From contig NZ_CP028339.1 of the NCBI RefSeq assembly GCF_003030465.1, positions 248,001 to 312,000 on the forward strand: 64,000 nucleotides of DNA, written 5' to 3'. The stretch is from Thauera aromatica K172 (GTDB lineage: Bacteria > Pseudomonadota > Gammaproteobacteria > Burkholderiales > Rhodocyclaceae). A model generated the notes under the pieces. It was not told the origin of the DNA and did no database searches. It saw only the letters and a list, made by a program, of their open reading frames with translations. This document shows, in pieces, positions 7,402 to 30,538 of this stretch. The position numbers and the translations under genes were made by a program. Within the stretch, counting starts at the first letter, position 1. The number at the start of each line of letters is the position of its first letter.

Positions 7402-7405
7402 AGCA

Positions 7406-8914: not shown

Positions 8915-8964
8915 TGACCCTGTCCCCGTTTGATGGACGCCATCAAGGGCACTGCGGCAGCAAG

Positions 8965-9915
8965 TTATCCACGGGCGCGCGCCTGCGGCGCCTCATACGC
9001 AGGCAGAGCGCGCGGCGGTGGATAACTTGCGATGCTGTCCGGTTGAGTGTTCGGTTGCTGCATTGCCCACCTCCTTTCGAATTGGACCGGACTGTCGTAA
9101 TCAAGTGCGCTGTGCCGACGTTCGGTGTTGTAGTAGCCGATGTACTGGGTTAGATCGTCGATCGCCTGTTGGCGTGTGGCGTAGTGTTCGTCATAGACCC
9201 GTTCGACCTTGAGCGTGCCGTTGGCCGACTCCATCGGTGAGTTGTCGTAGCAGTTCGCGCGCCGGCTCATCGACACCGTGATGCCTTGAGCATCGAGTAC
9301 CTCGCGATAGTCGTGCGCGCAGTACTGGCTGCCGCGATCGGAGTGGTGCAGCAGGCCGGCGGGCGGCCGTCGCATGCCCAGCGCTAGGGCCAGCGCCGCC
9401 ATCGTGAGCTGCGTGTCGATGCGATCGCTCATCGCCCACCCGACCAGCCGGCGACTGAACAAGTCCATCACCAGCGCGACGTACAACCACCCCTCGTCGG
9501 TGCCGACGTAGGTGATGTCGGTCACCCATTTCTGATTCGGCGCACTCGCGCTGAAATCGCGCTCGAGCAGGTTCGGCGCTACCGGCAGGCTGTGGCCCGA
9601 ATCGGTCGTGCGCACAAAACGGCGCCGCCGGCGTGCTTGCAAGCCCTCGCGCAGCATCAGCCGGCGTACCCGCTTGTGATTGACCGGAAAGCCCGCAGCG
9701 CGCAGATCGCGGGTGAGCCGCGGACGCCCGTACTTGCCCCGATGGTGTGCATGGCATGCGTGCAGCATCACCACCAGCTCCTCGTCGCGGCGCACCCGCG
9801 CCGATGGCCCGCGACCCCGCCACGCGTAGAAGCCGCTGCGCGAGACCTCGAGCAGCACACACATGCGCGTCACCGGCCAGCGCACCGACTGTTGCTCAAT
9901 CCACGCGTACTTCAC
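8965..9915 (-). CDS. IS3-family transposase OrfB (element B)
   Basis: The 316-residue catalytic subunit. The HTH_21 segment (LLEVSRSGFYAWRGRGPS… HRGKYGRPRLTRDL) precedes the rve core with WVTDITYVGTDEGW, HHSDRGSQY and DNSPMESANGTLK carrying the DDE triad. The GTG start at 9915 overlaps the orfA stop. An A-AAA-AAG slippery heptamer in orfA (CTAAAAAAG near 9950) suggests that an OrfAB fusion is made by -1 frameshifting. Confidence 0.95.
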   Translation of the reverse strand: MKYAWIEQQSVRWPVTRMCVLLEVSRSGFYAWRGRGPSARVRRDEELVVMLHACHAHHRGKYGRPRLTRDLRAAGFPVNHKRVRRLMLREGLQARRRRRFVRTTDSGHSLPVAPNLLERDFSASAPNQKWVTDITYVGTDEGWLYVALVMDLFSRRLVGWAMSDRIDTQLTMAALALALGMRRPPAGLLHHSDRGSQYCAHDYREVLDAQGITVSMSRRANCYDNSPMESANGTLKVERVYDEHYATRQQAIDDLTQYIGYYNTERRHSALDYDSPVQFERRWAMQQPNTQPDSIASYPPPRALPAYEAPQARARG

Positions 9916-10217
9916 CGCGACTCCCTGGCAAAGTACGCCGCCGCCTTTTTTAGAATCTCGTTGTCGAGCTTGAGTCGCGCGTTTTCTGCCCGCAGCCTAC
10001 TCAACTCGGCTTGTGCGTCATTGACGGGCGCCGCCGCCGCTCGCCTGGCGAGCGGCTTGCCACGCCGCGCCCGGCGCACCCAGTTGCCCAGCGTCTTCGG
10101 CGAAATGTCCAGACTGCACGCCACCTCGCTCGCGCTGCGTCCAGCCTCCATCACCTGACGTACCGCCGCCTCGCGAAATTCCACCGTATAGACCCGCTTC
10201 GGTATCCTCGTTTTCAT
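9912..10217 (-). CDS. IS3-family transposase OrfA (element B)
   Basis: A 101-residue HTH_Tnp_1 protein: MKTRIPKRVYTVEFREAAVR, a helix-turn-helix with EVACSLDISPKTLGNWVRR, then a leucine zipper (LSRLRAENARLKLDNEILKK). The ATG at 10217 follows an AGGAACGTGAG ribosome-binding site; an in-frame ATG at 10232 would add five residues. The poly-A slippery site lies in the ILKK codons. Confidence 0.93.
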   Translation of the reverse strand: MKTRIPKRVYTVEFREAAVRQVMEAGRSASEVACSLDISPKTLGNWVRRARRGKPLARRAAAAPVNDAQAELSRLRAENARLKLDNEILKKAAAYFARESR

Positions 10218-10282
10218 CTCACGTTCCTCCATGAAGCCTTAGAGCCGCACTTCATGGCGTCCGTTTTTCGGGGGCAAGCTCA

Positions 10283-11563
10283 ATGTGTCCTGCAGGTGAA
10301 GACGAGTCTGATGCCGTCAGGGAGGGGTGTGCGGATCAGGTCTCGGACGAAAGCCGTGTCGCCATGCTCTTCTCCGGCCATGTCTGCATTGTCCGCAGCA
10401 TCAATGATGAGGCACAGGCTTGCCTGCGGATGTCTTGCCTGCAGTAACCCGATGGCCTGCCCGAGCCTGCCGCTGAAAGCCCGCATGAAGCGCTTGCCGT
10501 CTGCGTTCGCGGATGGGATCAACGGGTGACACAAACCCTGGGCCGCGAGCTCGTTCGCAATCTGCGGGAGCGCGTCGCGGTGGCGGTGCCTGAAATGAAG
10601 CGTGTTGCGGTAGAGGCCATCACCGAAGCAGTCATAGAGCACCGCGACAGAGCCGATTGGCATTGATTTCGCCAGGCTCAACGCAAGAACCGATTTACCA
10701 ACCCCTCCATCGGCATGCAGTACGATCGGATGCTTCGCTAGGAAAAGCGCCTCGCGGATGTCGGCTTCCTGCTCCCGAGGTAGCATCTCGGAGGGGCCAA
10801 CGATCAGGCAAGGCGCTGGCAGGAGATCTGTCTCCGAGACCTTCAGCGCGCGCAGCACGTCGTGCCGTCGAATCGCAGGATCTTCGGCAAACTCGGATGT
10901 TGCTTTGCATGCAACCAGTTCCTTGAGTTGAACTGGAGTGTCGTAGTCGGCTTCAGCCAGGTAGATGCTGACGTCCTGGGCCAGCAGGTTCCGTTGGGTC
11001 CATAGGCCCGGCTCGCCGCCGTCCGCAGAGAAGATCTGGAAGAAATCCGACGCTTCAGAGCCACCGAGTTCCGTGTATCGAAGCAGGGTGCTCTGGATCT
11101 TCGGATGGCGTGGAGTTCGCGCATTGGCCAGGTCTTCCAGGGCTTGCTGGACCTTTTGATCGATCGGCCGGTTGGTGGTGAAGCTAAACCTGACCTTCTG
11201 CTTAAGGGTCGCTGCCGGAATCTTCCGGCGGAGGCTGACATAACGCTTCGCAAAGCCTCTTAGCGTCTTATCAAAACCGCTTGCCGTCCAGGGTTCCTGG
11301 GGATGCTTGGTCGAGTGTTTTAGCTGGATGTACTGAACGAACCGGGCGTCCTCCAACGTTTCGCTACCGTAGTAGAGGCCGACGTCAATCAGTTCGTCGC
11401 CGTCTTCCTCCGAGGCCGCGCCCTCTGAGGTCGATGCCCCCTCGATCGATACCGCAACGAGGTCGCCCGATCCGGGCAATAGGGCGAGGCAGTGGCGTGC
11501 AGCCCAATGGTAGTGGAACTGATCCCCGTCGCGGCTCGGCCGCACCAACTCATCACTCGCCAT
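10283..11563 (-). pseudogene. Avs-like STAND NTPase gene, fragment 1 (nuclease and P-loop domains)
   Basis: This is the 5' end of an Avs-type antiphage gene, 427 codons up to the IS. Residues about 10-180 resemble the Cap4/DUF4297 PD-(D/E)xK nuclease: SRDGDQFHYHWAARHCLALL at the start, SIEG (Glu41), ELIDVG (Asp60) and YIQLKHS (Gln80, Lys82). Walker A is GGVGKS (286-291) and Walker B is CLIIDAADN (384-392); VFTCRTH is a sensor-like segment. The family senses phage proteins and then cleaves DNA. The inserted IS supplies a TGA directly after …CRTH, so a truncated nuclease-NTPase stub could still be made. Subtype (Avs1 to Avs4) cannot be fixed from sequence reading alone. The ATG at 11563 opens the frame. 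Confidence 0.82.
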
Positions 11564-11955
11564 ATTCTTGGTTGCTCGTCCTCGTGAGTTGGCAAGTTTA
11601 GCGGAACGCTCGCACTCCTCTTGCCGACTGAACCATTGGCGGCTGAACTACCATGCAGAACGGTATGCAGACACCCCTTGTCTTTCCCTGCTTGGCTACA
11701 TCATGCACGCTGGTTGTCCGCATGGAATATCCCAGCGAAGTGAGCCAGCGCCGGATACCCGGCGCAGACCGGATACTGGTCATCATGATTTGAAGTCCTG
11801 CACATAGGGGTCGGAAGGGTAAGTTCAGGGAAAGGAAGTCCTCCCACTCAGCTCGCACCTCGCCCCCGGTTTGAATGGCTGCTGTGCGCTTCACGGCCGC
11901 CGCTCATACAGCGTAAGCCGCTGGCGGCAATGGCCGAGAACCCGCCGCACCCGCC
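11564..11955. other. Intergenic region without a supported gene
   Basis: About 390 bases between the start of the Avs-like gene and the end of the helicase pseudogene. A 98-codon leftward frame is open here (11598-11894), but it has no recognisable protein character and no ribosome-binding site. The promoter of the Avs-like gene should lie in the left part. I see no clear -35/-10 pair. Confidence 0.5.
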
Positions 11956-15511: not shown

Positions 15512-15946
15512 TCAGGCCGGCATCCACCTGAGGAGCTTTTCGAGGCGCTGCGGTTCTTGCTGCAGATCGCTGAGGGTGTATTTGCCGAGCACGGCGAGGA
15601 AGGCTTCCTGCGCCTCGAGCATGATGTGGTTCAGCCGGCATGACGGCAGGATCCGGCAGGTCGGCTCGTGGCAGTTGATCGGGGTCAGCGTTTCCTCGAC
15701 GGCTTCGACGACGCTGCGCAGGTTGATTTTGCTTGCCGGGCGGTTGAGGCGGATTCCGCCGCCCTTGCCGCGGATCGTTTCGACATAACCCAGCCGCGCC
15801 AGGTGATTCACGATCTTGACCAGGTTGTTGCGGGGGATGTCGAAATGCTCCGACACGATGGAAATCGTGACGAGTTCGGCCGGCTTCTGCAGTCCGAGAA
15901 AAATCAGCGTGCGAAACGCGTAGTCGGTGTATCGGGTCAGCTGCAT
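15512..15946 (-). CDS. nsrR: Rrf2-family nitric-oxide-sensing repressor NsrR
   Basis: 144 residues with an N-terminal winged helix (MQLTRYTDYAFRTLIFLG) and the iron-sulfur motif Cys92-x4-Cys97-x5-Cys103 (CHEPTCRILPSC), spaced as in NsrR of enteric bacteria. NsrR holds a [4Fe-4S] or [2Fe-2S] cluster; nitric oxide damages it and lifts repression of NO-detoxification genes. The adjacent gene encodes a flavorubredoxin, a usual NsrR target, which supports the assignment. IscR has a different cysteine spacing and is less likely. Confidence 0.92.
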   Translation of the reverse strand: MQLTRYTDYAFRTLIFLGLQKPAELVTISIVSEHFDIPRNNLVKIVNHLARLGYVETIRGKGGGIRLNRPASKINLRSVVEAVEETLTPINCHEPTCRILPSCRLNHIMLEAQEAFLAVLGKYTLSDLQQEPQRLEKLLRWMPA

Positions 15947-16168: not shown

Positions 16169-18820
16169 TCAGAGCAGTGCTGGCAACTGCTGCAGCAGGG
16201 CTGCGCCATTGCTCAGATGGACTCCGGTAACGACGTAGCCGACCAGTTCGCCGTCGCCGTTGTGCGCCTTGCCGGTGAGGCCGCTTTCATCGCCCTCGAC
16301 GGTCCAGCTGAGGCCGTCCGTGACCGTGCGGCCGCCGACCTGGATCGGCAGGGCCGGCGTTTTGACGACGGTCGGCATTGCCGGCAGGCATAGCGGGGTA
16401 GGCTCGCCGGCAAGCGTTTTTGCGAGCGCCTGGGCGGACAGCGCCAGCGGCTGCATGAAGGGCAGCACGAGCCCCTCGATTTCGGCGCAGTCGCCCAGGG
16501 CGTAGATGTGCTCGGCGCTGCTTCTCAGATACGAGTCGACCTGGATGCCCCGGTTGATCCTGAGCCCGGCCGCGCCTGCAAGCGCCGTGCGGGGACGCAG
16601 GCCTGCGGCGGCGATGACGGTGTCGATCTCGACGGTCGTCCCGTCCGAGAGTTGCGCCGTGATTGCGCCGCCGCTCGAGTCGAGGGCGGTGACGCGGTGG
16701 CCGAGGTGGAGGCGGCAACCTTTCTGCGCCAGCGTCGCTTCGAGGTGCCGGCTGACGAATTCGGGCAACAGCTTGGCGAGCGAGTGCGGCGAAGAGTCGG
16801 TCAGCCAGACCTGCTGCCCGCCTTCGGCGAGATCCAGTGCGATCTCGGTGCCGACCAGGCCGGCGCCGATGACCAGCACGCGCTCTCCGGCGCTGACGTG
16901 GCGCAGGTAGTTTTCGTAATCGGCGAGGTTGTTGAGGGTGATCATCCGATCGGTGGCGTTGCCTTCGAGCGGAGGAATCCAGGGGTTGGCGCCGAGGGCC
17001 AGGACGAGATCGCGGTAGGGCAGCGTTTCAGCTCCGATCCGTACCGTTTTCCGCTGCTGGTCGATCGCGTCCACCCGGGTATGGGGCCGGATCGTGATGC
17101 CGAACTCATGGGCCAGCTGTGCCGCCGTGCGCTCGACGAAGTCGGCGGCGCCGAGCTTGCGGCTGAAGCCATGGACCAGCTGCGGTTTGGAATAGTCGGC
17201 GCCGTCGTCGGCGGTGACGACGACCACCGGCGTGTGCGGATCGAGGGCGCGGAACGCGCGCACCAGCTGGTAGGTCGCGCTGCCGCCGCCGACGATCACG
17301 ACGGGGGCGGAGTGCGCTGCCGCGGCGGTGGTCGCGCCGGCGCCGTTGGGCATGCGGTGCAGCGGTTCGAACACGGATTTGCCGAGGAAGCACTCCGGGC
17401 AGAGGAAGGTGTCGGGAAGGTCGGACCACGGGGTGCCGGCGGCGATGCCTTGCGCCGGGCTGCCTTGTGCGGGGTCGTAGGTCCAGCCGCAGACCCGGCA
17501 GCGCATCGCGCTCGCGCTCTGCGGCAGGGTATTCCTGACTGCGGCGGCGGCAGGTTTCGGGGCGGGGCGTGCCGGTGCCGGCTGCGTCGCGGCCGCTGTC
17601 CGCTCGATGACATTCGCCGGCTCCGCGCCGCCGCGCCATTCCTGCGCGATGCGCTGGCCGAAGGCGACGCAGTCGGCGAGGGCGTCCTCGGTCGGCTTCC
17701 ACAGGGCCTTGATGCCGCTGGCGACATTGAAGCCGGCCTCTTCGAGGCGCTCGCCGATGCGGTCGACGGCGCCGCCGTTCCAGCCGTGGCTGCCGAACGG
17801 GGAGGCGTATTTGCCGCGGAAGCGCAGCCCGCGCATTTCCTCGAGCAGCGCCGCCACTTGCGGGAGCATGCCGTTATTGACGGTGGGCGAGCCGATCAGC
17901 ACGCCTTTCGACTTGAACACCTGAGTCAGGACGTCGTTCTTGTCGGAAAGGGCGAGGTTGAACATCTTGACTTCGACCGTCGGGTCGGCGGCGCGGATGC
18001 CGCGGGTGATCGCTTCCGCCATGTGGCGGGTGCCGTTCCACATCGTGTCGTACACCAGGGTGATCTGGTTTTCCTGGTAATCGTCGGCCCACGCCAGGTA
18101 TTGCTCGACGATCTGCGCCGGATTGTCGCGCCAGATGACGCCGTGGGCCGGGCAGATCATGTCGAGCGGCAGGTTGAACGACAGCACTTCCTTGATTTTT
18201 GCCGTCACCAGCGGGCTGAACGGCGTCAGGATATTGGCATAATATTTGAGGCACTCGGCGCGCAGCTCGTCCTGGTCCACGAGGTCGTTGTACATCTTTT
18301 CGCTGGCGTAGTGCTGGCCGAACGCGTCGTTGCTGAACAGCACCGCGTCCCCGCTCAGATACGTCAGCATGCTGTCCGGCCAGTGCAGCATCGGTGCTTC
18401 GACGAATACCAGCTGCTTGCCGTTGCCGAGGTCGAGCGTGTCGCCGGTCTTGACGATGCGGAAGTTCCAGTCCTTGTGGAAGTGCCCTTTGAGCGATTTG
18501 ACGCCATTCTCGGTGCAATAGATCGGGGTGTCGGGAATTCTTGCCAGCAATGCCGGCAGCGCACCGCTGTGGTCGATCTCGGCGTGGTTGGCGATGATGT
18601 AGTCGATCCGGTGGAGATCGATTTCCTTTTCGAGGTTGTCGACGAACTCCTGGGCGTAGAGGCTCCAGACGGTATCGATCAGTGCGACTTTTTCCTCGCG
18701 CACGAGGTAGCTGTTATAGCTCGAGCCTTTGTGCGTCGAGTATTCCGCGCCGTGAAACTCACGCAGCTCCCAATCGAGCTTGCCGACCCAGGTAATGTTG
18801 TTTTTGACCACGAAAGACAT
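16169..18820 (-). CDS. Flavorubredoxin-NADH:rubredoxin reductase fusion (NorV-NorW in one chain)
   Basis: An 883-residue anaerobic NO reductase. Residues 1-250 form the diiron beta-lactamase domain with ligands His79, Glu81, Asp83, His146, Asp165 and His226. Residues about 252-400 are flavodoxin ([25 protein letters not shown]). A Pro/Ala linker leads to rubredoxin with Cys441, Cys444, Cys474 and Cys477. From about 505 there is an FAD/NAD reductase of NorW type ([39 protein letters not shown]). In Escherichia coli NorV and NorW are separate. The start at 18820 follows AAGGAGCATGGA; a 16-residue upstream extension is unlikely. NsrR, encoded next to it, is the probable regulator. Confidence 0.95.
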
Positions 18821-18842
18821 TCCATGCTCCTTATCCGGTGAG

Positions 18843-18875
18843 GACTCTTGCAGGGCCTTTCGCGGCACAAGAGTC
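18843..18875. promoter_or_regulatory. Inverted repeat in the norVW-like leader
   Basis: GACTCTTG (18843-18850) and CAAGAGTC (18868-18875) are perfect 8-bp inverted arms around a 17-base loop, 23 to 55 bases upstream of the flavorubredoxin start. The spot fits an operator or an mRNA hairpin. No T-run follows, so it is not a terminator. Confidence 0.4.
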
Positions 18876-19251: not shown

Positions 19252-20169
19252 TTACGTATCCGCGGCGGAGAAGATGGCGTGCTCTGCGACGTATCGTGAC
19301 AGATGGTCGCGGAACGCCGCGGCGGCAGGCGAGAGCGAGCGGCCGTTGCGGGTGAAGATGTAGAAGCGGCGGAAGACTTCCGGGGCAACGAGCGGGCGCA
19401 TCCTCAGGCCATACAGGCGGACGAGCGAAGCGGCATAGGGAATGCAGATCGTCGCCCCGAGCCCGACCGAAACCATGCTCAGTGCGGTCGACATGAAGGT
19501 CACGGTGGCGTTGGGGTTGAGATCGAGCTCGCGCATCGCGTTGTGAAGATCGGTCGACAGGCGCTCGGTGAACTGGCCCTGCAGGGTGATCAGCGGGTAG
19601 CTGGCGAGTTCGGCCCAGCGCACCGACGCGGCGTTCGCCAGCGGGTGGTCGCGGTGAAAAACCGCATGGAAGGGCAACTCGAAGAGCAGCGCCGCGTCGA
19701 TGTCGGAATTCGGGTCCCGCTCGGGGCCGACGCCCAGGTCCACCTCTCCCGAAAAGACCCGTGAAGTCACGCTCTCGACCGCGCAGTCGATGAGCCGGAT
19801 GGTGATGTCCGGACAGTCGCGCGCAAACGCAGCGATCACGTCCGGCAGCAGCGTGCACGCCATCAACTGGGGGGCCGCGATGCGCACCACGCCCCGTTTC
19901 AGCGCCTTGATGTTTGCAACTTCGTCGAGGGCACCGTCGAGGTCGACGAGGATCTTCTCGATGAGCGGATGGATCCCGCGGCCGACCTCCGACAGCTGGA
20001 TCCGCCGTGTGCTGCGATCGAACAGGCGAACGCCCAGGACCTGCTCCAGTTCCTTGATCAGCCCGCTGAGGGCCGACTGTGTGATGTAGAGGCTCTCGGC
20101 GGCGAGGGTGAAGCTCCCGGTCCGGGTGACGGCAAGGAAGGCACGGAGCTGCCGCAGCGTTACATTCAT
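19252..20169 (-). CDS. LysR-family transcriptional regulator of the aromatic cluster
   Basis: 305 residues: a winged helix-turn-helix (MNVTLRQLRAFLAVTRTGSF… ESLYITQSALSGLIKELE) and a periplasmic-binding-like effector domain (GVVRIAAPQLMACTLLPDVI onward). The start at 20169 matches the usual LysR beginning; the frame is open for 46 further codons upstream without family similarity. It is divergent from the VOC-hydrolase-isomerase-synthetase-P450-TRAP cluster, the classical arrangement of a LysR activator and its targets. The inducer is unknown but should be a substrate or intermediate of that pathway. Confidence 0.9.
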   Translation of the reverse strand: MNVTLRQLRAFLAVTRTGSFTLAAESLYITQSALSGLIKELEQVLGVRLFDRSTRRIQLSEVGRGIHPLIEKILVDLDGALDEVANIKALKRGVVRIAAPQLMACTLLPDVIAAFARDCPDITIRLIDCAVESVTSRVFSGEVDLGVGPERDPNSDIDAALLFELPFHAVFHRDHPLANAASVRWAELASYPLITLQGQFTERLSTDLHNAMRELDLNPNATVTFMSTALSMVSVGLGATICIPYAASLVRLYGLRMRPLVAPEVFRRFYIFTRNGRSLSPAAAAFRDHLSRYVAEHAIFSAADT

Positions 20170-20306: not shown

Positions 20307-20858
20307 ATGACCCCGATCGTGAAAAAGATCCACCACGTGGCCTACCGCTGCACCGACGCGCTCGAGACCGCGCGCTGGTACGAAAAGCATCTCGGCATGA
20401 AGCTGGTGCTGTCGATCGCCGAGGACGCCGTGCCTTCCACCGGCGAGCCCGATCCCTACATGCACATCTTCCTCGACGCCGGCATGGGCAACGTCCTCGC
20501 TTTCTTCGAGCTGCCCACCTGCGCGCCGATGGGGCGCGACCAGAACACCCCGGTGTGGACCCAGCACCTGGCGCTGCAGGTCGAGTCGGTGGAAGTGATG
20601 ATGGCGGCCAAGACCCGCCTCGAGGCCGAAGGCATCGAAGTCGTCGGTCCCACCGACCACGCCCTGTTCCAGTCGATCTACTTCTACGACCCCAACGGCC
20701 ACCGCCTCGAGCTCGCCGCCAACACCGCCTCGCCGAAGATGTACGAGGCCCTCGACCAGGTGAAGTGGGCGATGCTGGAAGAGTGGGCGCAGACGAAGAA
20801 GGCGCCCAAGCATGCCGCCTGGATGCACGACGGCAGCTACAAGGAGATGTTCAAGTGA
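20307..20858 (+). CDS. VOC-superfamily metalloenzyme, candidate ring-cleavage dioxygenase
   Basis: 183 residues with the two beta-alpha-beta-beta-beta modules of the vicinal-oxygen-chelate fold. The likely metal ligands are His in KKIHHVAYRC, His in TQHLALQVE and Glu in GHRLELAAN, i.e. the His-His-Glu set of glyoxalase I and extradiol dioxygenases. It is the first gene of the cluster, after a GAGAGAGGAGACTGCA leader with a good ribosome-binding site, and overlaps the next gene. Because the next two genes act after homogentisate or gentisate ring opening and no cupin dioxygenase is present, it may open the ring. A glyoxalase-like role is the alternative. Confidence 0.7.
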   Translation: MTPIVKKIHHVAYRCTDALETARWYEKHLGMKLVLSIAEDAVPSTGEPDPYMHIFLDAGMGNVLAFFELPTCAPMGRDQNTPVWTQHLALQVESVEVMMAAKTRLEAEGIEVVGPTDHALFQSIYFYDPNGHRLELAANTASPKMYEALDQVKWAMLEEWAQTKKAPKHAAWMHDGSYKEMFK

Positions 20859-21865
20859 AGCTTGCCACCCTCAAGCACGGCGGCCGCGACGGCACCCTGG
20901 TCGTCGTCAGCCGCGACCTCACCCGCTGCCGCGCGGTGCCGGCGATCGCACGCACGCTGCAGGCCGCGCTCGACGACTGGGCGGCGTGCGAGCCGCAGCT
21001 GCGCCAGGTGTACGAGGCAGTCAACAGCGGCGCGGTCAACACCCAGCCCTTCGACCAGGCCGCCTGCGCCTCGCCCCTGCCGCGCGCCTACCAGTGGGCT
21101 GACGGCTCGGCCTACCTCAACCACGTCGAACTGGTGCGCCGCGCGCGCAACGCCGAAGTGCCGGCGAGCTTCTACACCGACCCGCTGATGTACCAGGGCG
21201 GCTCGGACAGCTTCATCGGCCCGCGCGATGCGGTGGTGGCCGCCGAGGCCTGGGGCATCGACTTCGAGGCCGAAGTCACCGTGGTCACCGGCGACGTGGC
21301 GCTGGGGGCGAGCCCGGAAGAGGCGGCGCAGGCGATCCGGCTGGTGATGCTGGTGAACGACGTCAGCCTGCGCAACCTGATTCCGGCCGAGCTGGCGAAG
21401 GGCTTCGGCTTCTTCCAGAGCAAGCCCGCTTCGGCCTTCAGCCCGGTGGCGGTGACGCCCGACGAGCTCGGCGCGGCGTGGAAGGACGCCAAGGTGCACC
21501 TGCCGCTGGTGGTGCATCTGAACGACAAGCTGTTCGGCAAGCCCAACGCCGGCGTGGACATGAGCTTCGACTTTGGCCGGCTGGTCGCCCACGTGGCCAA
21601 GACGCGCGAACTCGAGGCCGGCTCGATCATCGGTTCGGGGACGGTATCGAACAAGCAGGGCGACCTGTGGGGCTCGTCGATCGAGCACGGCGGGGTCGGC
21701 TACTGCTGTCTGGCGGAGCTGCGCACCTACGAGACGATCGAGCAGGGCGAGCCGGCGACCCCGTTCATGCGTGACGGCGATACCGTGCGCATCGAGATGT
21801 TCGATCGCGAGGGCCGCAGCGTGTTCGGCACGATCGAGAACCGGGTGGCGGCGCTCGGGGGCTGA
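20855..21865 (+). CDS. Fumarylacetoacetate hydrolase family protein
   Basis: 336 residues of the FAH superfamily. The N-terminal domain starts MKLATLKHGGRDGTLVVVSR. The catalytic metal site is visible in WGIDFEAEVTVVTGDV (Glu ligands) and the GSGTVSNK segment. It hydrolyses the C-C bond of fumarylacetoacetate, or fumarylpyruvate in gentisate pathways, to fumarate plus acetoacetate or pyruvate. The GTG start at 20855 overlaps the VOC stop codon (GTGA), so the two are translationally coupled. The acetoacetyl-CoA synthetase gene downstream points to acetoacetate as product. Confidence 0.87.
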   Translation: MKLATLKHGGRDGTLVVVSRDLTRCRAVPAIARTLQAALDDWAACEPQLRQVYEAVNSGAVNTQPFDQAACASPLPRAYQWADGSAYLNHVELVRRARNAEVPASFYTDPLMYQGGSDSFIGPRDAVVAAEAWGIDFEAEVTVVTGDVALGASPEEAAQAIRLVMLVNDVSLRNLIPAELAKGFGFFQSKPASAFSPVAVTPDELGAAWKDAKVHLPLVVHLNDKLFGKPNAGVDMSFDFGRLVAHVAKTRELEAGSIIGSGTVSNKQGDLWGSSIEHGGVGYCCLAELRTYETIEQGEPATPFMRDGDTVRIEMFDREGRSVFGTIENRVAALGG

Positions 21866-21869
21866 GGCA

Positions 21870-22514
21870 ATGAAGCTCTACACCTACTTCCGCAGCTCGG
21901 CCGCCTACCGCGTGCGGATCGCCCTCCACCTCAAGGGGCTGGAGTACGAGGCGGTCCCGGTCCACCTGACACGCGACGGCGGGGAACAACGTCGGCCCGA
22001 GTATCTGGCGCTGAATCCGGCTGGCCTGGTGCCCGCGCTGGAGGATGCGGGGCGGGTGCTGACGCAGTCGCTCGCGATCATCGAGTATCTGGACGAGATC
22101 CATCCGCAGGCGCCGCTGTTGCCCGCGCAGGCGCTCGACCGGGCGCGCGTGCGCGAGATCGCCCAGATGATCGGCTGCGACATCCACCCGATCAACAACC
22201 TGCGGGTGCTGCAGTACCTCGGGCGGGAGTTCGCTGCCACCGAAGCGCAGCGCAATGCGTGGTACCGGCATTGGGTGGAGCTCGGCCTCGCCACGGTCGA
22301 GGCCCGCCTCGCCGGCGACGGGCACAGCGGGGCGTTCTGCCATGGCGACCGCCCCGGCCTGGCCGACTGCTGCCTGGTGCCCCAGGTGTTCAACGCCCGG
22401 CGTTTCGACTGCGACCTCTCGGCGATGCCGACGGTGCGCGCAATCGCCGCCCGGTGCGAGGAACTGGAGGCGTTCCGGCGCGCGGCGCCGGCGGCGCAGC
22501 CCGATGCTGAGTGA
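21870..22514 (+). CDS. maiA: Maleylacetoacetate isomerase (zeta-class glutathione transferase)
   Basis: 214 residues. The N-terminal thioredoxin fold carries the zeta motif SSAAYRVR at about residues 9-16, followed by NPAGLVPALED and QSLAIIEYLDE; the all-helical C-terminal domain has IGCDIHPINNLRVLQYL, a signature of maleylacetoacetate and maleylpyruvate isomerases. It uses glutathione to convert the cis ring-fission product to the trans isomer, the substrate of the hydrolase encoded just upstream. The start is four bases after the hydrolase stop. Confidence 0.92.
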   Translation: MKLYTYFRSSAAYRVRIALHLKGLEYEAVPVHLTRDGGEQRRPEYLALNPAGLVPALEDAGRVLTQSLAIIEYLDEIHPQAPLLPAQALDRARVREIAQMIGCDIHPINNLRVLQYLGREFAATEAQRNAWYRHWVELGLATVEARLAGDGHSGAFCHGDRPGLADCCLVPQVFNARRFDCDLSAMPTVRAIAARCEELEAFRRAAPAAQPDAE

Positions 22515-22604
22515 GGCCTGGTCGGGTGGTCCGGTAACGGCCGCGTCCGGCGCGCGCGGGAAGGCGCGCCTCGAATCGGATTCGCATACGAATGAGTTCC
22601 ATGA

Positions 22605-24587
<1,983 letters not shown>

Positions 24588-24659
24588 ATGATCGGGGTGG
24601 ATTGCCAACGCTTCGGGATGATTTGTTTCCTATAACTGAACCTGTCAGGAAGAGACGTC

Positions 24660-26990
24660 GTGACGATCGAGAACTCAACTCAAGCGCAGCCGACCCGGGG
24701 CGGATGCCCTGTCCGTCATTCCGAGGGCGCGTGTCCGGCGTCCGCGCTGGCCGCCGCCTTCGACCCCTTCGAGGGACCGTACCAGGTCGATCCGGCCGAA
24801 GCGCTGCGCTGGTCGCGCGATCAGCTGCCGGTTTTCTACAGTCCCAAACTCGGCTACTGGATCGTCAGCCGCTATGACGACATAAAGTCCGTGTTCCGTG
24901 ACAACGTGCTGTATTCACCGCGCAATGCGCTGGAAAAGATCACCCCGGCGACGCCGGAGGCGATGAAGGTGCTGGCAAGCTACGGCTATGCGATGAACCG
25001 GACGCTGGTCAACGAGGACGAGCCCGCCCACATGGAGCGCCGCCGCGTCCTGCTCGACCACTTCCTGCCCGAGAACCTCGAGGCCAAGCAGGAGATGGTC
25101 CGGCGCCTGACACGGGAGAAGATCGACGGCTTCATCGACCGCGGCCGCGTCGACCTGGTCGAGGAAATGCTGTACGAAGTTCCGCTGACGATCGCGCTCC
25201 ACTTTCTCGGCGTCCCCGAGGACGAGATCGAGCGCATGCGCAGCTTCGCGGTCGCACATGCGGTCAACACCTGGGGGCGGCCGACGCCGGAGCAGCAGGT
25301 CGAGGTCGCCCATGCGGTGGGCCGTTTCTGGCAATACGCCGGCGAAGTGATCGAAAAGATGCGCGCCGATCCGGACGGTGAGGGCTGGATGCACTACACC
25401 ATCCGCAAGAACGCCGAGATTCCCGAGATCGTCACCGACAGCTATGTCCATTCGATGATGATGGCGATCATCGTCGCGGCGCACGAGACCACTTCGCTGG
25501 CCTCGACCAACATGTTCAAGACGCTGCTGACCCATCGTGACGCCTGGGAGGATGTCTGCGCCGATCCGTCGCTGATCCCCAACGCGGTCGAGGAATGCCT
25601 GCGCTACGCCGGCTCGATGGTCGCCTGGCGGCGCGAAACCACCGCTGCCGCGCAGCTGGGCGGCGTCGAGCTGCCCGCAGGGGCGAAGCTGCTGATCGTC
25701 CAGGCCTCGGGCAATCAGGACGAGCGCCACTTCGAAGACGGCGACCGGTTCGATATCTACCGCGACAACGCGGTCGAGCATCTGACTTTCGGCTATGGCA
25801 GCCACCAGTGCCTGGGCAAGAACATCGGCCGCCTGGAGATGCGCATCTTCCTCGAAGAGATGAGCCGCCGCCTGCCCCACCTCCGCCTCGCCGAGCAGGA
25901 GTTCACCTACCTGCCGAATACGTCGTTCCGCGGCCCCAACAACCTGTGGGTGGAATGGGACCCCGAGCACAATCCCGAGCGTGCCAACCCGGCGCTGCGC
26001 CGCGGAAGCGTCCATTTTCCCGTCGGCGCGCCGCTGCGCAAGGAGATCGCACGCAAGGTCCGGGTGAGCGCGGTCCGGCAGGAGGCTGGCGGTGTGCTCG
26101 GGCTGACCCTGGAAGATGTCAGGGGGCGTCCGCTGCCGCGCTGGAGCGCCGGAGCGCATGGCGAACTCTGCCTGGGCGAGTATGAGCGCAAGTATTCGCT
26201 GTGCGGGCGGCCCGACGCGCCCGGCTACGACGTCGCGATCCTTCTCGAAGAGCAGGGACGCGGCGGTTCCCGTCATATCCATGAAGTCGTGCGCCCGGGT
26301 ACGGAACTGAAGTTGCGGGGGCCGAACAACTTGTTCCGTCTCGATGAAAGCGCCCGCAGCTACGTGCTGATTGCGGGCGGAATCGGGATTACGCCGATCC
26401 TGGCGATGGCGGACCGGCTGAAAATGCTCGGACGCGATTACGTGATCCATTACGCCGGTCGATCGCGCGCCTCGATGGCATTCCTCGCCCGGCTCGAATC
26501 CGATCACGGCGGCCGTGTCCGGATCTATTCAAAACAAGAGGGTGAGCGCGCCGATCTGCCCGCCATCGTCGATTCATTGGCCGAAGGCGCGCAGATCTAT
26601 GCCTGCGGGCCGGCGCGGATGATCCGTGCGCTGGAAGACCTTTGCGCCGAATTGCCCGGCAATACGCTCCATTTCGAACATTTCTCCGCGCAAGGTTCCG
26701 GCCTCGATCCGGAAAAGGAGAGCGCCTTCGAGGTGGAATTGATGGATTCCGGCCTGACCGTAGCGGTTGCCGCCGATACGACGCTGCTCGAAGCGATCCG
26801 GGCGGTCGGCATCGACCTCGCCAGCGATTGCTGCGAGGGGCTGTGCGGAAGCTGCGAGGTGAGCGTGCTGGAGGGCGAGATCGATCACCGCGATCTGGTC
26901 CTGACCCGTGCCGAGCGGGCTGAAAACCGGCGCATGATGGCGTGTTGTTCCCGCGCCAAGAGTGGAGGGCGGATCAAGCTGGCGCTGTGA
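24660..26990 (+). CDS. Self-sufficient cytochrome P450 of CYP116B type (P450-reductase-ferredoxin fusion)
   Basis: 776 residues. The P450 domain (1 to about 450) has the I-helix AAHETT (273-278), ExxR at 312-315 and the haem loop [10 protein letters not shown] with Cys384. It is followed by a phthalate-dioxygenase-reductase-like module with the FMN motif RKYSLC and the NAD(P)H-binding [13 protein letters not shown]. The C-terminal plant-type [2Fe-2S] domain has CCEGLCGSC and a distal Cys in MMACCSR. Such fusions hydroxylate or dealkylate aromatic compounds with NAD(P)H alone. Here it probably makes the hydroquinone-type ring substrate. The GTG start at 24660 follows AGGAAGAGACGTC. Confidence 0.95.
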
Positions 26991-27032
26991 TCCCGCGAGT
27001 CGTAGCACAGAAGTTCAAACAGGAGAGACAAA

Positions 27033-28067
27033 ATGAAATCGAAGCGTAATGCACTCATCGGTGCCGCACTGTCGGCGGTGATGGCGCTGGGCATCGCCAG
27101 CGACGCCGAAGCCCGGACCAAGTTGAAGCTCAGCCACTATCTGCCTTCGGTGCACGGCATCCATACCGATTTCATCGTGCCGTGGACCAAGCAGGTCGCG
27201 GAGTGCTCCGGCGGCGAAGTCGAGTTCGAGGTGTTTCCGGCCGGTACCCAGCTGGGGAACGTCGCCCGCCAGCAGGAGCAGGTCGTTGCCGGCGTGGTCG
27301 ATATCGCCCACGGCCTGCACGGCATTCCGCGCGGCCGCTTTCCGCGGACCTCGCTGATCGACATGCCCTTCCTCACCGATGACGCCGGCGCCGCGACGCA
27401 TGCGCTGTGGCAGCTGCTGCCCGGGGTATTGGCCGAAGAGTACAAGGGGCTGAAGGTCCTGGCGCTCCATGCGCATAACGGCGGCCTGCTCCACACCCGC
27501 GGGAAGAAGGTCGAGACCATGGAGGACATGAAGGGGCTGCGCATCCGCACGCCGAGCCCGGCGGTTTCGGACATGCTGTCTTTCCTCGGTGCGACGCCGC
27601 AGGGTCTGCCGCCCGGCGAAGTCTACGAGAACCTCCAGCGCGGTGTACTGGACGGCACCGTATTCCCCTGGGATCCGGTCAAGTCCTTCGGCCTGAACGA
27701 GGTGCTGAGTAACCACCTCGATCTCGGCGCCTACACCGTGTCGTTCTTCTTCGTCATGAACGAGCGTTCGTATGCGCGGCTCAGCCCCAAGGCGCGCGCC
27801 TGCATCGACCAGTACTCCGGGGACGCGCTGGTCGCCAAGTTCGACGCCTGGTGGGACGCCTGGGACAAGCCGGGCCGCGACGAAGCGGTTGCCGCCGGCC
27901 ATGTGATCACCGAGCTGTCGGATGCCGAACGTGAGCGCTGGCGCAAGGCGCTGCAGCCGATGATCGATGCCTACGTCCAGAAAGTGAAGAACGAAGGCGT
28001 GGCCAATGCGGAGGAGATCTACCGGCTGATGCAGGAAAAGATCGCTGCGTACAAGGCGGCGAAGTAA
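27033..28067 (+). CDS. TRAP transporter substrate-binding protein (DctP family)
   Basis: 344 residues with a Sec signal peptide (KRNALIGAALSAVMALGIASDAEA) and a DctP fold. The conserved arginine that binds the substrate carboxylate is in KGLRIRTPSPAVSD; NLQRGVLDGTVFPWD is also family-typical. It captures an organic acid in the periplasm for the membrane genes dctQ and dctM that follow. The location after the P450 suggests an aromatic acid. An AGGAGAGACAAA ribosome-binding site precedes the ATG. Confidence 0.93.
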   Translation: MKSKRNALIGAALSAVMALGIASDAEARTKLKLSHYLPSVHGIHTDFIVPWTKQVAECSGGEVEFEVFPAGTQLGNVARQQEQVVAGVVDIAHGLHGIPRGRFPRTSLIDMPFLTDDAGAATHALWQLLPGVLAEEYKGLKVLALHAHNGGLLHTRGKKVETMEDMKGLRIRTPSPAVSDMLSFLGATPQGLPPGEVYENLQRGVLDGTVFPWDPVKSFGLNEVLSNHLDLGAYTVSFFFVMNERSYARLSPKARACIDQYSGDALVAKFDAWWDAWDKPGRDEAVAAGHVITELSDAERERWRKALQPMIDAYVQKVKNEGVANAEEIYRLMQEKIAAYKAAK

Positions 28068-28152
28068 CCAGGGCCTTGAAGCCCTGGCCCGGACCGGCCC
28101 GCGTGGCAGCCATGCCAGGGCCGGTCACTCACCTCTGATAGGAGACAAACCG

Positions 28153-28641
28153 GTGACTCGAGTGCATAGCCTCGCACGTTCCCTCGTGTCGGCCCTGGCC
28201 GCCTTGGGCGTCGCCGCATACGGCGGTGCCGCGCTGGTGACGGTGGCCGATGTGATTGGACGGAACTTCGACCTGCCCGTGCAAGGGGTGGTCGATCTGG
28301 TGCAGCTGCTCGTCGTCACCGGCGCCTGGCTGGTGATGCCATTCGCGTTCATGAGCGGCGCCCATGTCGGCGTGGACTTCGTGGTCAAGGCCCTGCCGGG
28401 CGCGCTCAGGGTTCCACTGCAGCTTGGCGCTGCGGGGGTCGCGTTGGCGCTGGTGGGCTTGATGCTTTGGTACGGCTTCGAGACCTTCGACGTCCGCTCG
28501 GCTTACGGCGACCGCTCGCAGCAGCTCGGCATTCCGGTGGCGTGGTACTGGTATCCGCTGCTCGTGGGGCTCACCCTGTCGCTGCTCGGGGTTGTGCTGG
28601 AGGTGCTTGCCACCTTACCGAAGGGGACCGGCAATGAGTGA
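28153..28641 (+). CDS. TRAP transporter small permease (DctQ family)
   Basis: 162 residues with four hydrophobic segments (about 10-32, 46-66, 88-112 and 127-150) and the DctQ signature GAWLVMPFAFMSGAHVGVDF. It forms the small membrane subunit that bridges the binding protein and DctM. The GTG start at 28153 follows AGGAGACAAACC. It overlaps the dctM start by 8 bases. Confidence 0.9.
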   Translation: MTRVHSLARSLVSALAALGVAAYGGAALVTVADVIGRNFDLPVQGVVDLVQLLVVTGAWLVMPFAFMSGAHVGVDFVVKALPGALRVPLQLGAAGVALALVGLMLWYGFETFDVRSAYGDRSQQLGIPVAWYWYPLLVGLTLSLLGVVLEVLATLPKGTGNE

Positions 28642-29935
28642 TGGATTTCTCGGCTTCGCAGGTTTCGTCGCCGCGCTTGGATTGATCGCGCTCGGCATGC
28701 CGGTCGCCGTCGCCATGGGAATCATCGGCGTACTCGGCTACTGGTGGCTGAACGGCTGGGCGGGCACCGCCTATATCCTCGGTTCGAGCCCCTTCGAGTC
28801 GATCTTTCCTTATTCCTTCAGCGTCATTCCGCTGTTCGTGATGATGGGTGTCTTTGCCTCCCATGCAGGTTTGTCGCGCTCGCTGTTCAACGCGATCAAC
28901 AGCTTCGTCGGCCATCGACGGGGCGGGCTGGCGGTGACTACGGTCGGCGCCTGCGCCTTTTTCGGGGCGATCTGCGGCAGCTCGCTGGCCACGGTGGCGA
29001 CCATCGGCCGGGTCGCATTGCCCGAGATGAAACGCGCCGGTTACGACGACTCCCTGGCCACGGCCACGGTTGCCGCCGGCGGCACGCTGGGCGTGCTCAT
29101 TCCGCCGTCGGTATTGCTGGTGATCTACGGCCTGCTGACGCAGAGTTCGATCGGGCAGCTGTTCATTGCCGCGCTGATTCCGGGAATCCTCGGTGCGGTT
29201 CTGTATGCGCTCGCGATCGTGGTCCGGGTGAGGCAGCGTCCCGATCTCGCCCCGTCCTCGCCACGCACGGGGTGGACCGACCGCATCCGTTATCTCGGGC
29301 AGATCTGGCCGGTGGTGGTGCTGTTCGTGACGGTGATCGGGGGCATCTATGTGGGGCTGTTCACGCCGACCGAAGCGGCTGCCGTGGGTGCGGTCGGCGC
29401 GTTCCTGCTGGCTCTGAGCTCGGGCAAGCTGAGCGCTCGGGCACTGCGTGAGTCGGTCGCCGAGACGGCTGCCTTGACCGGGATGATCTTCTTCATCCTG
29501 ATCGGCGCGGCGCTGTTCAATTTCTTTCTCGAGAACACCGGGCTGCCCCAGTTTCTGATCGGCCAGATCGAGGCCTCCGGCCTCAGCCCGCTGGCCGTGA
29601 TGGTGCTGATCCTGGTCTTTTACCTGATCCTGGGCTGCTTCATGGACTCCATGTCGATGATCCTGCTGACCGTGCCGCTGCTGGCGCCGGTCGCGCTGCA
29701 ACTCGATTACAGCCTGATCTGGTTCGGGATCGTGGTCGTCACGGTGGCCGAGATCGGTCTGATCACCCCGCCGATCGGCATGAACCTTTTCGTCGTCCAG
29801 GCGGCGACGCGCGGCGTATCGTCCGGGACGGTGGTGCGTGGGATCCTGCCCTTCATCGTCGCGGACCTGTTGCGGCTGGTGCTGCTGCTCGCTTTCCCGG
29901 TCCTGGTCCTGTGGTTGCCGGGGGCAATGTCGTGA
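28634..29935 (+). CDS. TRAP transporter large permease (DctM family)
   Basis: 433 residues with at least 11 hydrophobic segments. Family motifs: GASGA-like FFGAICGSSLATVATIG, GVLIPPSVLLVIYGLLT, LGCFMDSMSMILLTVPLLAP and EIGLITPPIGMNLFV. It catalyses sodium-driven uptake of the substrate delivered by DctP. The ATG at 28634 lies inside the end of dctQ. Third gene of the transporter operon. Confidence 0.94.
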   Translation: MSDGFLGFAGFVAALGLIALGMPVAVAMGIIGVLGYWWLNGWAGTAYILGSSPFESIFPYSFSVIPLFVMMGVFASHAGLSRSLFNAINSFVGHRRGGLAVTTVGACAFFGAICGSSLATVATIGRVALPEMKRAGYDDSLATATVAAGGTLGVLIPPSVLLVIYGLLTQSSIGQLFIAALIPGILGAVLYALAIVVRVRQRPDLAPSSPRTGWTDRIRYLGQIWPVVVLFVTVIGGIYVGLFTPTEAAAVGAVGAFLLALSSGKLSARALRESVAETAALTGMIFFILIGAALFNFFLENTGLPQFLIGQIEASGLSPLAVMVLILVFYLILGCFMDSMSMILLTVPLLAPVALQLDYSLIWFGIVVVTVAEIGLITPPIGMNLFVVQAATRGVSSGTVVRGILPFIVADLLRLVLLLAFPVLVLWLPGAMS

Positions 29936-29995
29936 GCGGGCGATTGCGGTCGGATGCGTACCCGAAAGCTGTCAAGAATAGAAAGGATGCCAACC

Positions 29996-30538
29996 GTGAG
30001 TGAAAAGAGTTCCGCCGGAGGGGGCGAGACCCCCATCTCCGATTTCTCCAAGTGCCATATGGGGATTCTCAAAGAGCTGGAGGCCTTCTCCGAACTGCCG
30101 GCGCTTTTGTCTGCGGCCGAGCGTGCCAGGCGGGTCGCGCAGCGGGTGGTGGAGATGTTCGGTCAGGCCGTGATCGAGCACCATGCCGAGGAGGAGGAGG
30201 AGCTCTTCCCCGCGGTGCTGGCGAGTGCCTTGCCCGGCGAGGAGCTTGAACTCGTCAAGCAGCTCGTCGGCCGGCTGGTACGGGAGCATCGCGAAGCGGA
30301 AGCGATCTGGAAGCGTCTCGCCCCCGCGGTCAAGAAAGCGGCCAAGGGCCAGAGCGTCCACATCGATTTCGCCGAAGTCGAGCACCTGATGCGCAAATAT
30401 GCCGAGCATGCCTCCTTCGAGGAGGCGGAATTCCTCCCCCTGTCGGAGCGGATCCTCCGGCGCAATGCGAACCACATGGCTGCGCTGGGCCTCTCGCTGC
30501 ACATGCGTCACCTGCCCTTACACACCCGCAACATCTGA
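29996..30538 (+). CDS. Hemerythrin-like (HHE domain) protein
   Basis: 180 residues, a four-helix bundle with spaced histidines and acidic residues: CHMGILKELEAF, EHHAEEEEELFP, EHREAEAIW and YAEHASFEEAEFLPL. Such proteins bind a diiron site and sense or scavenge O2, NO or iron. I choose the GTG at 29996, which follows AGAAAGG at a proper distance; earlier ATG codons at 29954 and 29987 have none. It is 60 bases after dctM on the same strand and may belong to the cluster. The context of NsrR and flavorubredoxin makes an NO or redox role plausible. Confidence 0.8.
   Translation: MSEKSSAGGGETPISDFSKCHMGILKELEAFSELPALLSAAERARRVAQRVVEMFGQAVIEHHAEEEEELFPAVLASALPGEELELVKQLVGRLVREHREAEAIWKRLAPAVKKAAKGQSVHIDFAEVEHLMRKYAEHASFEEAEFLPLSERILRRNANHMAALGLSLHMRHLPLHTRNI

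What the first reader, a model, noticed from the sequence alone, without database searches (positions are those of the whole stretch)
20307..29935. Possible undescribed aromatic pathway: VOC enzyme, hydrolase, isomerase, acetoacetyl-CoA synthetase, CYP116B and TRAP transporter
The genes are co-oriented and divergent from a LysR gene. The isomerase and hydrolase act after ring opening of homogentisate or gentisate, and the synthetase handles acetoacetate, which points to a homogentisate-like skeleton. No cupin dioxygenase is present; the VOC protein has the His-His-Glu metal set, overlaps the hydrolase gene and may be the ring-opening enzyme. The self-sufficient P450 could make the hydroquinone from an acid imported by the TRAP system.
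Basis: partly seen in the sequence, partly recalled or inferred. Interest (0 to 1): 0.75.

Follow-up and report, generated by a model that had tools for sequence, protein, structure and literature searches.

The report
Homogentisate operon with unusual ring-opening enzyme
This bacterial gene cluster most likely imports and eats 2-hydroxyphenylacetate by turning it into homogentisate and then breaking the ring with a small glyoxalase-fold enzyme in place of the textbook one, an overlooked substitute that seems common in related bacteria and is still labelled only 'VOC family protein'.

Summary
The genes are real: a divergent LysR gene, then VOC–FAH–MAI–AACS–CYP116B–DctPQM on one strand. (1) Its best PDB match (59% identical) is 9u42, deposited as 'Homogentisate 1,2-Dioxygenase from Acinetobacter'. 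(2) The cupin enzyme HmgA was not found in this 99.95% complete genome. (3) Of 31 family genomes with 4-hydroxyphenylpyruvate dioxygenase (HPPD), which makes homogentisate, 24 carry VOC (1 of them HmgA too), 6 carry HmgA or a divergent HmgA-like cupin, 1 neither; HPPD lies right beside VOC at 9 of 53 places. (4) CYP116B enzymes are published makers of homogentisate from 2-hydroxyphenylacetate, the likely substrate. Not new: the CYP116B role (2021–2025) and the VOC-type dioxygenase as a PDB entry (2025). New as far as my searches go: both joined in one operon with AACS and a TRAP transporter, and evidence that VOC widely stands in for HmgA. Main counter-evidence: VOC and HmgA share a cluster at 3 of 80 loci, and 6 of 28 order-level genomes with HPPD and VOC also have HmgA. 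No activity was measured.

The parts
19252..20169 (-). LysR-family regulator, divergent from the operon
   Evidence: Pfam HTH_1 and LysR_substrate; LysR relatives of 56-80% identity sit divergent beside VOC at other loci, e.g. L040, L042, L087, L089, L091, L093
20307..20858 (+). VOC (glyoxalase-fold) single-domain protein, best read as homogentisate 1,2-dioxygenase
   Evidence: PDB 9u42 E 1.1e-89 and 59% identity; metal and second-shell residues identical in 113 of 113; genome complementarity with HmgA
20855..21865 (+). fumarylacetoacetate hydrolase family protein (FAA_hydro_N_2 type), GTG start
   Evidence: Pfam FAA_hydrolase 130 bits, FAA_hydro_N_2 99 bits; PDB 3lzk E 6.7e-141
21870..22514 (+). 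maleylacetoacetate isomerase (MaiA/HmgC)
   Evidence: TIGR01262 303.5 bits over cut-off 171
22605..24587 (+). acetoacetate-CoA ligase (AACS)
   Evidence: TIGR01217 962 bits over cut-off 521
24660..26990 (+). CYP116B-type self-sufficient P450; likely 2-hydroxyphenylacetate 5-hydroxylase
   Evidence: full-length match to 6kbh and 6laa; published role of CYP116B enzymes
27033..28067 (+). TRAP transporter solute-binding protein DctP
   Evidence: Pfam DctP 164 bits
28153..28641 (+). TRAP small permease DctQ
   Evidence: Pfam DctQ 72.5 bits
28634..29935 (+). TRAP large permease DctM
   Evidence: TIGR00786 345 bits over cut-off 268
29954..30538 (+). hemerythrin-domain protein, possible last gene of the operon
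   Evidence: Pfam Hemerythrin 49.6 bits; relatives within about 8.3 kb of VOC in L069, L098, L193; membership of the operon is inferred

Best explanation
The operon is a complete homogentisate-type catabolic unit. DctPQM imports an ortho-hydroxylated phenylacetate, most likely 2-hydroxyphenylacetate (inferred). The CYP116B enzyme hydroxylates it at C5 to homogentisate (inferred from published CYP116B enzymes). The VOC protein, a single-domain metal-dependent (probably Fe(II)) p-hydroquinone dioxygenase with H10, H87 and E135 as likely metal ligands, opens the ring between C1 and C2 to maleylacetoacetate (inferred; a homologue is named so in the PDB, genome evidence shown here). MaiA isomerises this to fumarylacetoacetate, FAH splits it to fumarate and acetoacetate, and AACS activates acetoacetate to acetoacetyl-CoA (inferred from family membership). 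The LysR protein presumably activates the operon. VOC replaces the cupin HmgA, which was not found in this genome.
For: Homologue 9u42 'Homogentisate 1,2-Dioxygenase from Acinetobacter'; the Acinetobacter gene (L173, 58% identical) sits in fahA-maiA-VOC-iclR, with hppD just beyond on the other strand. HmgA: no match in the genome to PF04209 or TIGR01015. Family level: VOC in 50 of 150 genomes at >=59% identity (two further genomes match at 38-39% and are not counted), HmgA over cut-off in 2 of 150, HPPD over cut-off in 31 of 150. Of the 31, 24 have VOC, 7 have HmgA or HmgA-like, 1 of these both, 1 neither; of the 119 without HPPD, 26 have VOC, this genome among them. Order level, 300 genomes: of 87 with HPPD 81 have HmgA, HmgA-like or VOC; of the 28 without any HmgA, 22 have VOC, against 9 of 213 genomes without HPPD. 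HPPD lies beside VOC, same strand, match ends 17-53 bases apart, at 9 of 53 family VOC places (coordinates; count of places). At 80 named loci 62 have a FAH gene on the same strand within 6 kb; at 53 of the 80 it is within 250 bases. Of 12 order-sample genomes with full-length CYP116B, 7 have HmgA, 4 have VOC without HmgA, 1 neither. CYP116B makes homogentisate from 2-hydroxyphenylacetate (PMC8449657, PMC11889516).
Against: No activity measured. VOC and HmgA lie in the same cluster at 3 of 80 named loci (L083, L158, L161), and 6 of 28 order-sample genomes with HPPD and VOC also have HmgA, so VOC could do a neighbouring reaction there. Six HPPD genomes have neither HmgA nor this VOC, only a more distant VOC group. 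Two remote members at the base of the VOC group (L174, L178; 47-49% identity) have an alpha/beta hydrolase gene as neighbour, so not every member need act on homogentisate. CYP116B was seen beside VOC in none of 102 other places (107 loci, 5 fetched twice; 70 of 107 hold 6 kb on both sides), and in 1 of 150 family genomes at all, this one, so the exact operon is seen once. 9u42 was solved with Zn, and I saw only its title and sequence match; the model's Foldseek overlay on it is poor (TM 0.42, rmsd 17.3). [quoted passage not shown] The CYP substrate rests on homology; the TRAP ligand on nothing but position.
Confidence: 0.82

Rival explanations
1. The VOC protein opens a different p-hydroquinone, such as methylhydroquinone from a cresol made by the P450; MAI and FAH then act on maleylacetone-type products, and AACS serves acetoacetate formed via acetone carboxylation.
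For: VOC p-hydroquinone dioxygenases exist (PDB 4huz, 2,6-dichloro-p-hydroquinone 1,2-dioxygenase, Z 10.8 over 157 residues). In the sister VOC group several members sit with an alpha/beta hydrolase or a FAD hydroxylase, as does L174 at the base of the main group, so the wider family probably takes several ring substrates.
Against: HPPD, which makes homogentisate itself, lies beside VOC at 9 of 53 family places; the nearest solved relative is named a homogentisate dioxygenase; no acetone carboxylase lies in the operon (the rest of the genome was not searched for one).
Confidence: 0.08
2. VOC is an accessory enzyme (detoxification or isomerisation of a reactive by-product), and ring opening is done by an unrecognised enzyme elsewhere in the genome.
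For: VOC and HmgA share a cluster at 3 of 80 loci and a genome in 6 of 28 HPPD+VOC cases.
Against: No HmgA found in this genome; near-exclusive distribution of VOC and HmgA among 87 HPPD genomes (6 with both, 22 VOC only, 53 HmgA or HmgA-like without VOC, 6 neither); residues expected of an extradiol active site (H10, H87, H118, Y125, E135; roles recalled) are identical in 113 of 113.
Confidence: 0.07
3. The cluster serves another acid (for example 3- or 4-hydroxyphenylacetate or phenylacetate) and CYP116B has a different natural substrate here.
For: VOC clusters elsewhere often carry a FAD hydroxylase (44 of 80) and none of the 80 carries CYP116B; this genome holds such a hydroxylase (80% identical) in a separate IclR-MBL-hydroxylase cluster at 3.22 Mb; CYP116B enzymes accept many substrates in vitro (recalled).
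Against: Three CYP116B enzymes are reported to use or prefer 2-hydroxyphenylacetate and make homogentisate (the third, CYP116B46, seen only as cited there).
Confidence: 0.15

Closest known systems
ohp genes of Cupriavidus pinatubonensis JMP134 (OhpA, a CYP116B; PMC8449657)
   Same: CYP116B converts 2-hydroxyphenylacetate to homogentisate, followed by HmgA/HmgC/HmgB; a solute-binding protein gene (ohpT) in the ohpA operon
   Different: There the dioxygenase is HmgA and the hmg genes are spread over two chromosomes; the main text has no occurrence of LysR, TRAP or glyoxalase (figures and supplements not seen). Here one operon holds VOC, FAH, MAI, AACS, CYP116B and a full TRAP system.
PDB 9u42, 'Homogentisate 1,2-Dioxygenase from Acinetobacter' (released 2025-07-23)
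   Same: single-domain glyoxalase fold, 59% identity, same conserved motifs; an Acinetobacter gene of this kind lies beside fahA and maiA
   Different: the Acinetobacter cluster has hppD beside it, pointing to tyrosine; no CYP116B, AACS or TRAP gene among the 12 features shown. No paper on it was found in the held library.
hmgABC homogentisate pathway (HmgA cupin dioxygenase)
   Same: same intermediates and downstream enzymes
   Different: the dioxygenase is of an unrelated fold; the HmgA models give no match in this genome
PcpA/LinE-type (chloro)hydroquinone 1,2-dioxygenases (names recalled)
   Same: VOC-fold ring cleavage of p-hydroquinones (4huz Z 10.8)
   Different: 4huz has 317 residues in the chain and acts on dichlorohydroquinone (title); this protein has one domain of 183 residues

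Membership tests
VOC-type homogentisate 1,2-dioxygenase (as PDB 9u42) | close sequence relation over full length | tested here: met
   profile match E 1.1e-89 over positions 2-174; 59% identity; the window and the Acinetobacter genes lie in one group (111 rows, SH-aLRT 97), parted from the sister group by a branch of 99
VOC-type homogentisate 1,2-dioxygenase (as PDB 9u42) | His-His-Glu metal site and extradiol-like His/Tyr | tested here: met
   H10, H87, E135, H118, Y125 identical in 113 of 113; the roles are recalled from extradiol enzymes
VOC-type homogentisate 1,2-dioxygenase (as PDB 9u42) | turns homogentisate into maleylacetoacetate | not testable with these tools
   needs an assay
Cupin homogentisate 1,2-dioxygenase (HmgA) | match to TIGR01015 / PF04209 | tested here: not met
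   VOC matches neither model at E<=0.001, and the genome has no match
CYP116B self-sufficient P450 | P450 haem domain fused to a 2Fe-2S phthalate-oxygenase-type reductase, high identity to CYP116B | tested here: met
   full-length alignment to 6kbh and 6laa, haem motif [10 protein letters not shown]; the assignment of those entries to CYP116B5/CYP116B46 is recalled
CYP116B self-sufficient P450 | 2-hydroxyphenylacetate 5-hydroxylase activity | not testable with these tools
   inferred from relatives
Homogentisate catabolic cluster | dioxygenase + MAI + FAH together | tested here: met
   VOC, FAH and MAI consecutive at 20307-22514
Gentisate pathway cluster | cupin gentisate dioxygenase within the cluster | tested here: not met
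   no cupin among the operon's proteins; a gentisate-dioxygenase-like cupin (254.6 bits, cut-off 442.1) lies elsewhere

The most novel reading that the evidence does not exclude
A single-domain VOC enzyme is a second, independently evolved homogentisate 1,2-dioxygenase that has displaced the cupin HmgA across much of this bacterium's family and in parts of its order and Acinetobacter. It closes the tyrosine, hydroxyphenylacetate and 2-hydroxyphenylacetate routes in genomes now scored as lacking the pathway. In this operon it has been joined to CYP116B, AACS and a TRAP transporter to make a one-locus pathway from 2-hydroxyphenylacetate to acetoacetyl-CoA.
Probability: 0.78. Interest if true: 0.6.

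Novelty: new variant of a known kind. Interest (0 to 1): 0.52.

Why it matters
Homogentisate cleavage is a central step in tyrosine catabolism, and its bacterial enzyme is normally found by looking for the cupin HmgA. If a VOC protein does the job, many bacteria now read as lacking the pathway have it, and genes labelled only 'VOC family protein' gain a function. It would be a clear case of one ring-cleavage reaction solved by two unrelated folds. It also gives CYP116B enzymes, much used in biocatalysis, another natural setting.

Tried and rejected
Gentisate as the VOC substrate: judged unlikely, because the genome has a separate gentisate-type cupin beside a FAD hydroxylase and AACS fits acetoacetate, not pyruvate.

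Treating the order-level distant VOC hits (E 4e-51 to 1e-42) as homogentisate dioxygenases, which would have made 87 of 87 HPPD genomes complete: rejected. Of the seven such loci read in the six genomes concerned (L179-L185), none shows FAH or MAI to my references, three have a FAD hydroxylase, one an alpha/beta hydrolase, three neither. They fall in a sister clade and differ at E39, Q86 and H132. One member of that clade, L199, does precede a fumarylacetoacetase gene, so the line is not sharp. Weaker VOC matches (E 1e-33 or weaker) were also left out of the counts. One HmgA fragment (G340, 510.4 bits against a cut-off of 510.75) was counted as HmgA; it has no HPPD. G378 was dropped from the CYP116B count (40% identity, P450 part only, one stop); G252's CYP116B match, which was kept, shows one stop inside.

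Loci L066-L072 were fetched because HPPD lies beside VOC, so the 9 of 27 HPPD neighbours printed for family loci is biased; I use 9 of 53 from coordinates instead. The first alignment A1 mixed strands and was discarded; A2 replaces it. In one search one reference (HmgAlike) was read on the wrong strand; it was corrected, and for positions of HmgA-like genes I rely. One search lost many VOC ORFs to the greedy ORF filter; counts come. For some searches, 128 of 139 loci gave a usable VOC sequence, with the window 129, 124 distinct. The tree is a quick one with some long branches (L174, L178, L200, L181).

VIA-align lists methylmalonyl-CoA epimerases, HPPD and extradiol enzymes at Z 10-12.5 in its top rows; 9u42 is not among the 50 shown. 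A shared VOC fold shows no function.

Literature: ten searches were run. Judged by the titles and abstract beginnings listed, none is a paper on a VOC-type homogentisate dioxygenase or on 9u42; four listings were capped (20 of 297, 20 of 47, 20 of 46 and 25 of 200 papers), and subscription journals are mostly not held. PMC9431530 (passages only) reports an A. baumannii 'hmgA' whose disruption goes with pyomelanin and whose expression abolishes it; whether that gene is the VOC gene could not be checked, so it is not used as evidence. PMC11945678 and PMC5343134 (passages) added nothing on the VOC gene.
Full report
What is there. The genome is 3.71 Mb in 2 contigs, 99.95% complete. Its genus is probably Thauera: G048, of the same genus, carries its VOC gene on a contig of the same length and at the same position as Thauera aminoaromatica S2 in the named collection. 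'Family' and 'order' below are the tool's groups, probably GTDB Rhodocyclaceae and Burkholderiales (my inference).

Downstream half. MAI and AACS pass curated equivalog cut-offs. FAH belongs to FAA_hydrolase with the FAA_hydro_N_2 domain. Together they would convert maleylacetoacetate to fumarate and acetoacetyl-CoA, which fits homogentisate and not gentisate (established pathway chemistry).

Upstream half. The P450 is a full-length relative of self-sufficient CYP116B enzymes. PMC8449657 (abstract, passages and one section read) shows by mutants, expression and assays that OhpA of C. pinatubonensis turns 2-hydroxyphenylacetate into homogentisate, and that presence of ohpA matched growth on this acid in the strains it tested.

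The ring-opening enzyme. HmgA was not found in the genome by either model. The VOC protein's best PDB match by sequence is 9u42_A (E 1.1e-89, molecule name 'Glyoxalase'), and Foldseek gives the entry's title as 'Crystal Structure of Homogentisate 1,2-Dioxygenase from Acinetobacter in Complex with Zn ion' (59% identity). I saw the title and the alignment, not a paper. In an A. baumannii record the gene lies in fahA-maiA-VOC-iclR with hppD just beyond on the other strand, and is annotated 'VOC family protein'. A 2020 paper (passages) noticed a type I ring-cleaving dioxygenase gene between hmgC and hmgR in A. baumannii, found no hmgA, and supposed the gene inactive; that it is the same gene is my reading of its position.

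Genome tests done here. In 150 genomes of the family, VOC (>=59% identity) is in 50, HmgA over cut-off in 2, HPPD over cut-off in 31. Of the 31, 24 have VOC, 7 have HmgA or a divergent HmgA-like cupin, 1 of these (G124) has both and 1 genome (G091) neither; 26 of the 119 without HPPD also have VOC. At 9 of 53 full-length VOC places HPPD lies beside it on the same strand, match ends 17-53 bases apart. In 300 genomes of the order, of 87 with HPPD: 38 HmgA only, 13 HmgA-like only, 22 VOC only, 6 VOC with HmgA, 2 HmgA with a distant VOC, 6 a distant VOC only. Among the 28 HPPD genomes without any HmgA, 22 have VOC, against 9 of 213 genomes without HPPD (Fisher p 7e-19, uncorrected for relatedness). 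Groups were set at gaps in the E-values after seeing them, and the VOC search scored at most 11 first-look candidates a genome.

Neighbourhoods. Only 46 of the 80 hold 6 kb on both sides, so absences are weak. A frequent plan is IclR(-), MBL-fold, FAD hydroxylase, VOC, FAH, MAI. In genome G004 (L074) the MBL and FAD-hydroxylase genes are followed on the same strand by an HmgA-like cupin instead of VOC, so the two kinds of dioxygenase can stand in the same place. Another kind has LysR(-), VOC, FAH and TRAP genes, like this window (L040, L042, L087, L093). CYP116B was beside VOC in none of 102 other places (107 loci, 5 fetched twice).

CYP116B genomes. Of 12 genomes in the order sample with full-length CYP116B, 7 have HmgA, 4 have VOC and no HmgA (G000, G252, G278, G315), and 1 (G273) has only the distant VOC. 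In G252, G278 and G315 the CYP116B and VOC genes lie on different contigs.

Residues and tree. H10, H87, E135, H118 and Y125 are identical in 113 of 113 proteins of this group, and in 11 of 11 of the sister group; E39, Q86 and H132 are identical in the 113 and different in all 11, so they are candidates for substrate choice. A branch with SH-aLRT 99 parts the two groups; Acinetobacter lies within the first. Several sister-group members lie with alpha/beta hydrolases or FAD hydroxylases, though one (L199) precedes fumarylacetoacetase. Two remote members at the base of the main group also have an alpha/beta hydrolase neighbour: L174 and L178, which has maiA on its other side.

Other sources of homogentisate in this genome. 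No HPPD was found (E<=1e-30). A FAD hydroxylase 80% identical to the one in the common cluster lies at 3.22 Mb beside its IclR and MBL genes, without VOC, FAH or MAI in the 17 kb read, so the window's VOC-FAH-MAI may serve that branch too (inference; that this hydroxylase makes homogentisate is itself an inference).

Against. No assay. VOC and HmgA occur together in some clusters and genomes. The operon as a whole is seen once. The TRAP ligand is a guess. The Foldseek overlay of the model (pLDDT 83.6) on 9u42 is poor (TM 0.42), perhaps because the two halves are arranged differently; I rely on sequence.

Verdict. A new variant of a known kind: a 2-hydroxyphenylacetate/homogentisate operon with a VOC-type dioxygenase. 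Its wider point, that this enzyme commonly stands in for HmgA, was not found in the ten literature searches listed under Tried and rejected (capped listings, open-licence papers only), but a PDB title anticipates the enzyme's function.

Noticed in passing
29954-30538: A hemerythrin-domain ORF follows the TRAP genes; relatives (48-53% identity) lie within about 8.3 kb of VOC in L069, L098 and L193. It may buffer oxygen for the oxygenases (guess).
   Followed up: partly
L208 (own genome 3.212-3.229 Mb) 7851-11583: IclR, MBL-fold and FAD hydroxylase genes (77-90% identical to the common VOC cluster) stand without VOC, FAH or MAI in the 17 kb read: half of a frequent cluster, separated from the window operon.
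   Followed up: partly
L073, L074, L075, L076, L080: A divergent HmgA-like cupin (53-95 bits against TIGR01015's cut-off of 511) lies with FAH in all five loci, MAI in four and HPPD in three: a possible third type of homogentisate dioxygenase.
   Followed up: partly
L175, L180-L183, L200, L201, and L174 at the base of the main group: Distant VOC relatives lie with alpha/beta hydrolases or FAD hydroxylases, pointing to another p-hydroquinone-type ring-cleavage pathway.
   Followed up: partly
L209 (own genome 1.159-1.177 Mb) 6763-10929: A gentisate-dioxygenase-like cupin with a FAD hydroxylase and a divergent LysR gene (last two named from sequence): probably a separate 3-hydroxybenzoate/gentisate route.
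   Followed up: partly
16169-18868: A flavodiiron protein fused to rubredoxin and an FAD reductase domain (named from the sequence by recall, no family search), near an Rrf2-like regulator gene at 15512-15946.
   Followed up: no
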